Virus record (IMG/VR): IMGVR_UViG_3300042433_000146
Coordinates: 1 to 64,000 of that record
Strand: one strand, 5' to 3'
DNA length: 64,000 nt
From: a virus
The notes under the pieces were generated by a model. It saw only the letters and a program-made list of their open reading frames with translations. It ran no database searches and was not told the DNA's origin. Shown here piece by piece: positions 9,058 to 9,432 of this stretch. How positions within the stretch are numbered: the first letter of the stretch is position 1; each line of letters starts with the position of its first letter. The position numbers were made by a program, and so were the translations under genes.

Positions 9058-9432
9058 GTGAAGACTTACCGACAGTTCATGGCCGAACAGAATTTGATGT
9101 ACCACGGGACACCCGCCGCGAATCTGAAGACGATTCAGAAGATCGGGTTGCGGCCTATGATCGGTGACAACAAAGAAACCGGCGAAGATGACGATCCCCG
9201 GTATCCACGGGTCCACCTGACCAAATCCCTGACGACGGCAAAATGGTATGCCAAGGGCGGCGTGAATGCCAAACCGTTCAGTCACAAGCGACAGATCAAA
9301 GGCGTCGTCCTAGTGATCGATGTGGATCTTCTCCCGAACCATCGCTTCATGAATGATCCGCATGAGCATATGGCGGTCATGACGGCCAAACCGATCCCGC
9401 CGGATGCGATTGTGGATGTGCTCCCGGCCTAA
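9058..9432 (+). CDS. ADP-ribosyltransferase-fold protein with capsid-targeting-like N-terminus, 124 aa
   Basis: Starts with GTG. The first residues MKTYRQFMAEQ match the T4 capsid-targeting peptide of IPIII (MKTYQEFIAE) at most positions, including the Glu where the prohead protease would cut. The rest has the ART/KptA-like pattern: MYHGTPAANLKTIQKIGLRP (residues about 14-33), then RVHLTKSLTTAKWYA, GVVLVIDVD and IPPDAIVDV near the end. I infer a small ADP-ribosyltransferase packaged in the head and injected, as T4 Alt is. Activity is not shown; catalytic residues outside the YHGT motif are uncertain. Late promoter directly upstream; 4-bp convergent overlap with the next gene. Confidence 0.8.
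   Translation: MKTYRQFMAEQNLMYHGTPAANLKTIQKIGLRPMIGDNKETGEDDDPRYPRVHLTKSLTTAKWYAKGGVNAKPFSHKRQIKGVVLVIDVDLLPNHRFMNDPHEHMAVMTAKPIPPDAIVDVLPA

What the first reader, a model, noticed from the sequence alone, without database searches (positions are those of the whole stretch)
9058..9432. ADP-ribosyltransferase-fold protein with a T4-like capsid-targeting peptide: a likely injected effector
MKTYRQFMAEQ closely matches the T4 IPIII capsid-targeting sequence MKTYQEFIAE, which directs proteins into the prohead and is cut after the Glu by the gp21 protease. The rest resembles an ART/KptA-like fold (YHGT motif). T4 Alt is also a packaged, injected ADP-ribosyltransferase, but is about five times larger and unrelated in sequence. 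A late promoter in front of this gene, inside an early-gene region, supports a virion protein.
Basis: partly seen in the sequence, partly recalled or inferred. Interest (0 to 1): 0.75.

Follow-up and report, generated by a model that had tools for sequence, protein, structure and literature searches.

The report
Head-packaged mini ADP-ribosyltransferase in T4-like phage
This small phage gene very probably makes an NAD-using (ADP-ribosyltransferase-type) enzyme with a 10-residue tag that sends it into the phage head, so that it enters the next host with the DNA; the same tag is on about 15 proteins of this phage, and in a related cultured phage tagged enzymes were found in the particles.

Summary
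The 124-aa ORF (GTG start) begins MKTYRQFMAE, 7/10 identical to the T4 IPII/IPIII capsid-targeting sequence (CTS); no unrelated start codon in the 184-kb record scores above 5. A late box (GATAAATA) lies 5 nt before the start, the arrangement seen before gp17, gp20, gp53 and gp4 homologues. About 15 proteins of this phage with unrelated bodies (Dps, SprT, CCA/PolyA polymerase, nucleotidyltransferase) carry the tag, and it has gp21 and gp23. In T4-like cyanophage S-CREM2 (published virion MS), 4/4 annotated proteins with the tag are in the virion (p=0.003). The body is an ADP-ribosyltransferase (ART) fold: a profile without KptA finds ARTs (KptA 7e-7), and the model matches KptA (3e-6, prob 1.0). 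It keeps the NAD lobe (HGT, VHLT) but lacks the RNA lobe, so it is KptA-like, not KptA. The tag directly before [YF]HGT occurs in 43 IMG/VR contigs, most of them ART-like (scrambled control: 0). The parts (CTS, packaged ARTs, phage KptA) are known; the combination and its recurrence appear undescribed in the papers I could search. Packaging is very likely, ART fold nearly certain; injection and target are inferred.

The parts
9058..9432 (+). CTS-tagged KptA-like ADP-ribosyltransferase-fold protein, 124 aa, GTG start
9058..9087 (+). Capsid-targeting sequence MKTYRQFMAE (residues 1-10); predicted gp21 cut after Glu10 (between 9087 and 9088)
   Evidence: 7/10 identical to T4 IPII/IPIII; residues 4, 7, 8, 10 are the T4 determinants (PMC9026906)
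9045..9052 (+). T4-type late promoter box GATAAATA, 5 nt before the start codon (near-leaderless)
9100..9111 (+). YHGT, NAD-binding motif 1 (His16, Thr18)
   Evidence: invariant in alignments A2 and A3; HGT contacts the NAD ribose in Tpt1 (PMC6333775)
9211..9222 (+). VHLT, ART motif 2 (equivalent of KptA VHLS)
   Evidence: alignment A2
8988..9019 (.). Perfect 12-bp inverted repeat (8988-8999 / 9008-9019) separating the upstream gene from this one
   Evidence: sequence
9022..9035 (.). TGACTTATATGTCA, degenerate copy of the palindromic operator found over early promoters in this region
2954..3241 (+). Second CTS-like protein of the window (MLTFAEFCEQ..., DUF5754/phrog_7595-like) with late box CATAAATA at 2940-2947
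4801..5634 (+). ADP-ribosylglycohydrolase (DraG/ARH type), possible counterpart enzyme
   Evidence: PF03747 E=3.8e-41

Best explanation
A late-expressed internal head protein that acts as an injected effector. The late promoter makes it during head assembly; the N-terminal 10-residue CTS docks it into the prohead core; the gp21 protease cuts after Glu10; the ~114-residue ART lobe stays in the head with the DNA and enters the next host, where it uses NAD+ to modify a host target at once, before any phage gene is read. As its catalytic lobe is of the H-H-h (KptA-like) type without the RNA lobe, the likeliest substrates are a nucleic acid end or a small molecule rather than RNA polymerase as for T4 Alt. 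Shown by computation: tag, promoter, fold, presence of gp21 and gp23. Inferred: packaging of this protein, cleavage, injection, catalysis, substrate.
For: CTS match and its specificity. About 15 proteins with unrelated bodies share the tag, with an aromatic at position 4, Phe/Tyr at 7 and Glu at 10 nearly throughout, the positions shown in T4 to govern targeting and processing (PMC9026906). Late promoter. gp21 protease and gp23, the latter with LLSE|G in its pro-region by inspection. Virion MS of S-CREM2: all 4 of 219 annotated proteins with the tag are among 52 detected (p=0.003), and S-SM1 cytidylyltransferase (MKKFSAFLNE) is in its virion. ART fold: the A3 profile without KptA hits only ARTs at E below 0.05; model pLDDT 74.6, pTM 0.70, top fold hits KptA/Tpt1, prob 1.00. 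The tag before [YF]HGT occurs in 43 IMG/VR contigs, 0 for a scrambled control; of 9 checked contigs of at least 70 kb, 8 have gp21 and gp23. A culturable relative exists: Caulobacter phage Cr30, MKTFKQFFNE...YYYHGTS.
Against: No virion proteomics of this phage. Met at position 8 and Gln after Glu10 differ from the T4 site, so cleavage could be poor (in T4, targeting can occur without processing). Pfam hits of the single sequence are below cut-off; the good model used an alignment that included six KptA sequences, and the single-sequence model failed. The S-CREM2 authors themselves could not exclude contamination. An early-type operator lies next to the promoter. Catalytic activity is not demonstrated.
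Confidence: 0.72

Rival explanations
1. Packaged, but mainly as a head-core component: the ART fold binds NAD or ADP-ribose or is inactive and has no effector role in the new host.
For: T4 IPII and IPIII are abundant internal proteins, and IPIII affects head assembly (PMC9026906). The sequence is fast-evolving with weak family scores.
Against: HGT and VHLT motifs are intact. Tagged cargo includes recognisable enzymes. T4 IPI and IPIII act on entry against host barriers (PMC9391042).
Confidence: 0.13
2. Intracellular late enzyme: made late and active in the infected cell (RNA repair, protection of the phage or counter-defence), with packaging incidental or absent.
For: KptA-type ARTs of jumbo phages are thought to repair RNA in the cell (PMC9503650, PMC7824862). 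Two ADP-ribosylglycohydrolases are encoded, which would suit intracellular ADP-ribose traffic.
Against: The RNA lobe with the essential Arg, His and Arg of Tpt1 is missing. The tag is conserved in separately tagged ART families and marks virion proteins in S-CREM2.
Confidence: 0.1
3. Early-expressed ART controlled by the neighbouring operator-like palindrome; the ATAAATA box is chance and the N-terminal resemblance is only a short amphipathic helix.
For: TGACTTATATGTCA at 9022-9035 resembles the early operator.
Against: On the + strand the -35 and -10 hexamers are poor (4/6 each by inspection). Box and spacing fit the late set. The same box plus tag combination occurs at other loci (2940, 95031, 98027, 164041).
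Confidence: 0.05

Closest known systems
T4 internal proteins IPI, IPII, IPIII (capsid-targeting sequence)
   Same: 10-residue N-terminal tag in the same register, Glu at the cleavage position, late-type promoter, gp21 and gp23 in the genome.
   Different: The body is an ART fold; the T4 IPs are unrelated. Met at position 8 and Gln after the cut.
T4 Alt (packaged ADP-ribosyltransferase)
   Same: ART superfamily, predicted to be carried in the head and injected.
   Different: Alt is about five times larger, of the R-S-E type, with a different propeptide; no sequence relation detected here.
Tpt1/KptA RNA 2'-phosphotransferase
   Same: The C-terminal NAD lobe: HGT motif, VHLT for VHLS, best fold and profile match.
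   Different: No winged-helix RNA lobe and none of its Arg-His-Arg residues; a capsid tag stands in its place.
Caulobacter phage Cr30 gp060 (YP_009098818.1) and the tagged YHGT family of environmental T4-like contigs
   Same: Tag directly before a YHGT ART-like domain in phages with gp21 and gp23.
   Different: Low identity (28% to Cr30); the large environmental family matches the ART-PolyVal type better than KptA.

Membership tests
T4-type capsid-targeted internal protein | Targeting residues 4 (aromatic) and 7 (Phe) | tested here: met
   Tyr4, Phe7; T4 has Tyr4, Phe7; determinants from PMC9026906
T4-type capsid-targeted internal protein | Processing residues 8 (Ile/Leu) and 10 (Glu) | tested here: inconclusive
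   Glu10 present, Met8 instead of Ile. FMAE also occurs in S-CREM2 virion protein gp12 (...FASFMAEAA)
T4-type capsid-targeted internal protein | Genome encodes gp21 protease and gp23 capsid protein | tested here: met
   PF03420 8e-37, PF07068 2.5e-141 in the overlapping record of the same phage
T4-type capsid-targeted internal protein | Late expression | tested here: inconclusive
   Late box by sequence and enrichment; no transcript data
T4-type capsid-targeted internal protein | Present and processed in virions | not testable with these tools
   Indirect support only: tagged proteins of S-CREM2 and S-SM1 in virions
ADP-ribosyltransferase superfamily | ART fold | tested here: met
   Foldseek KptA 3.4e-6, prob 1.00; profile without KptA finds KptA 6.5e-7, DarT1 1e-3
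ADP-ribosyltransferase superfamily | First-motif His (HGT) and second-motif His/Tyr | tested here: met
   YHGT 15-18 and VHLT 52-55
ADP-ribosyltransferase superfamily | NAD-dependent transfer | not testable with these tools
   Needs biochemistry
Tpt1/KptA | N-terminal RNA lobe with essential Arg, His, Arg | tested here: not met
   Only 14 residues precede YHGT, 10 of them the tag
Tpt1/KptA | Pfam PF01885 above cut-off | tested here: not met
   15.3 bits against cut-off 26
T4 Alt | Alt-type size and family match | tested here: not met
   124 aa; no Alt/VIP2-type Pfam or PHROG match

The most novel reading that the evidence does not exclude
T4-like phages far from T4 (cyanophages, a Caulobacter phage, environmental jumbo phages) use a swappable 10-residue capsid tag, often behind its own late promoter, as a general loading system for a many-enzyme arsenal delivered at the moment of infection; ADP-ribosyltransferases of at least two subfamilies were recruited to it independently, and the tag predicts virion cargo from sequence alone.
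Probability: 0.6. Interest if true: 0.78.

Novelty: new variant of a known kind. Interest (0 to 1): 0.65.

Why it matters
It turns a 10-residue N-terminal motif into a predictor of which phage proteins are carried into the host, including enzymes seen in cyanophage virions that their authors could not tell from contamination. It gives a small, testable candidate for a head-delivered ADP-ribosyltransferase other than Alt, with a culturable homologue (Cr30), and a list of about 15 candidate first-response factors in one phage.

Tried and rejected
Direct relatives by exact peptide patterns in IMG/VR and GTDB genomes, and by tblastn in phages and plasmids: none, nor in 13 T4-like records including the overlapping one (that one does not cover window 1-26676). 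Single-sequence AlphaFold: uninformative. Exact T4 box TATAAATA: near chance; replaced by this phage's own TAAATA consensus. Full Tpt1/KptA membership: rejected (no RNA lobe). The strong HMMER hit to KptA from profile A2 is circular because A2 contains KptA; repeated without it. PADLOC: no hit for the ART. ADP-ribosylglycohydrolase as a general partner of tagged ARTs: not supported, absent from nine other contigs with tag-YHGT hits. Cr30 cytidyltransferase, a neighbour of the tagged Cr30 ART, has no tag, nor do two of four other cytidylyltransferases checked (Bellamy, HTVC008M as annotated), so tagging of that enzyme is not universal.

Full report
What is there. Window 9058-9432 + encodes a 124-aa protein from a GTG start. 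There is no ATG, GTG or TTG upstream in frame. The gene stands alone between a perfect 12-bp inverted repeat (8988-9019) after the upstream gene and a convergent gene on the - strand (9429-9677).

The phage. The window is part of a 184,632-base virus record. A second IMG/VR record is the same phage (99.95-100% identical over the overlap), starts at our base 26,677 and runs 66 kb past our end; it supplies the complete gp21 protease, scaffold and gp23 capsid genes. The portal is nearest to cyanophage portals at 55%. It is therefore a distant T4-like jumbo phage of at least 251 kb, host unknown.

Tag. T4 IPII and IPIII read MKTYQEFIAE in the T4 record. The window protein reads MKTYRQFMAE. Across 6,394 start codons opening ORFs of 50 codons or more, identities to the T4 tag of 6-7 occur only in this gene and three others of the tagged set; the best unrelated start has 5, and a reversed-sequence control reaches 4. 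About 15 proteins of this phage share the pattern: positions 2954, 9058, 67325-, 95045, 98015-, 104531, 120358-, 141493, 163437-, 164027- in this record and 173874-, 174269-, 201829, 212260, 216078 in the overlapping record. Their bodies are unrelated: DUF5754-like, SprT-like with HEMVH, Dps/ferritin, DUF2786, PolyA/CCA polymerase with HD, cytidylyltransferase-like, DUF5710. In T4, residues 4 and 7 of the CTS govern targeting and 8 and 10 processing (PMC9026906); these are the conserved positions here. Tag and late box are associated (Fisher p=1e-8 over the starts of the record).

Promoter. TAAATA boxes precede late genes of recognisable identity (gp17, gp20, gp53 and gp4 homologues, named by me from sequence) with the start codon 5-9 nt later; 25 of 44 sites do so against 15% for permuted hexamers, p=3e-10. 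Ours is GATAAATA, 5 nt, GTG, the same layout as gp17 (CTAAATA, 5 nt, GTG). With T4 spacing the transcript would start at or within a few bases of the start codon, so many late mRNAs of this phage may be leaderless or nearly so. This is inference from sequence.

Experimental cross-check. The virion proteome of T4-like cyanophage S-CREM2 is published with coordinates (PMC10665884). I fetched its genome and tested the tag pattern at every start codon. Exactly four annotated CDSs match: gp6 SAM hydrolase MKDFDSFLEE, gp14 APH/ChoK-like kinase MKRFDAFLTE, gp136 MQTFSMFFSE, gp154 cytidylyltransferase MKNFSSFLTE. All four are among the 52 virion proteins of 219 (p=0.0029; 0.00035 after leaving out the 24 named structural proteins). 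The pattern was the one used on our phage except that Phe was added at position 8; that change brings in gp136 only, and without it the result is 3 of 3 (p about 0.013 by the same formula). gp12 (Cas9-like, in the virion) has an internal FASFMAEAA, the same FMAE as our protein; gp13 MKDLHSFLTE is also in the virion. The authors suggested encapsidation but could not exclude contamination; the tag offers a targeting explanation that the parts of the paper I read do not mention. In S-SM1 the cytidylyltransferase T4-GC190, found in virions (PMC3037559), starts MKKFSAFLNE.

Fold. Pfam alone gives sub-threshold KptA (0.022) and PARP (0.16). Relatives gathered by motif scans allowed a profile without any KptA; against the PDB it finds KptA (6.5e-7), DarT1 (1e-3), then cholix and PARP4 at 0.04-0.05, with one unrelated designed protein at 0.051. 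AlphaFold with a 16-row alignment gives pLDDT 74.6 and pTM 0.70, with a separate low-confidence helix for residues 4-10; Foldseek returns KptA/Tpt1 at 3e-6, prob 1.00, then DarT1 and other ARTs. HGT and VHLT are intact; in Tpt1 the HGT contacts the NAD ribose (PMC6333775). The RNA lobe carrying essential Arg18, His19 and Arg68 is absent. By the scheme of PMC9503650, H-H-h ARTs mostly act in RNA repair or on small molecules, so that is the best guess for the substrate class.

Recurrence. A scan of IMG/VR for the tag followed within 33 nt by [YF]HGT found 43 contigs, most of which hold ART-like ORFs by inspection; a scrambled motif found none. The largest family keeps Met1, Lys2, Phe7, Glu10 and Ala11 invariant, relates to ART-PolyVal and to our set (hhalign prob 96.6). 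Among 9 checked contigs of at least 70 kb, 8 have both gp21 and gp23. Caulobacter phage Cr30 gp060 is a tagged homologue in a cultured phage.

Prior art. Head-packaged ARTs, MuF fusions, Alt and KptA in jumbo phages are known (PMC9503650, PMC7824862), as is the CTS as a way to load varied proteins (PMC9026906). Searches of the open library found nothing on tagged KptA-like ARTs or on the tag in environmental T4-like phages; absence from this library is not proof of novelty.

Limits. No transcript, virion or enzyme data exist for this phage. Injection, cleavage, catalysis and substrate are inferred.

Noticed in passing
G000 166491-165985 (-); L010:7988-8491:-: Late-box gene starting MMSFSAFSRIPSLLFEEGG (resembles the longer IPI-type propeptide) with weak Acb1 similarity (E=0.0015, below cut-off) and two HxS motifs (H61, H131): possible head-delivered anti-CBASS 2H enzyme.
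   Followed up: partly
Overlapping record G001, about 161.9-162.7 kb (L012:14155-15003:-), and window 4801-5634: Two ADP-ribosylglycohydrolases of DraG/ARH type in one phage, one just downstream of gp23.
   Followed up: partly
window 1720, 2556, 6007, 7871, 10712, 11268, 11788 and others: Family of early promoters with a palindromic operator GACATATATGTC over the -35 element, mostly on the - strand: looks like a phage early regulon with a repressor site.
   Followed up: no
G000, 25 sites, e.g. 2940, 9045, 95031, 164041, 173160: Late boxes lie 5-9 nt before the start codon, so late transcripts may be leaderless or nearly so, including terminase and many tagged genes.
   Followed up: partly
G000 164027-163437 (-): Dps/ferritin-like protein (PF00210 2.6e-20) with capsid tag MKGFHQFLKE and late box: a Dps that may be packed with the phage DNA.
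   Followed up: partly
S-CREM2 OR473000 gp12 (10313-7704, - strand); L274: Cas9-like virion protein with a tag-like FASFMAEAA near its N-terminus.
   Followed up: partly
window 17091-20467: Cluster of 14 predicted tRNA genes on the - strand with repeated specificities (three Gln, three Glu, two each of His, Ile and Tyr).
   Followed up: no
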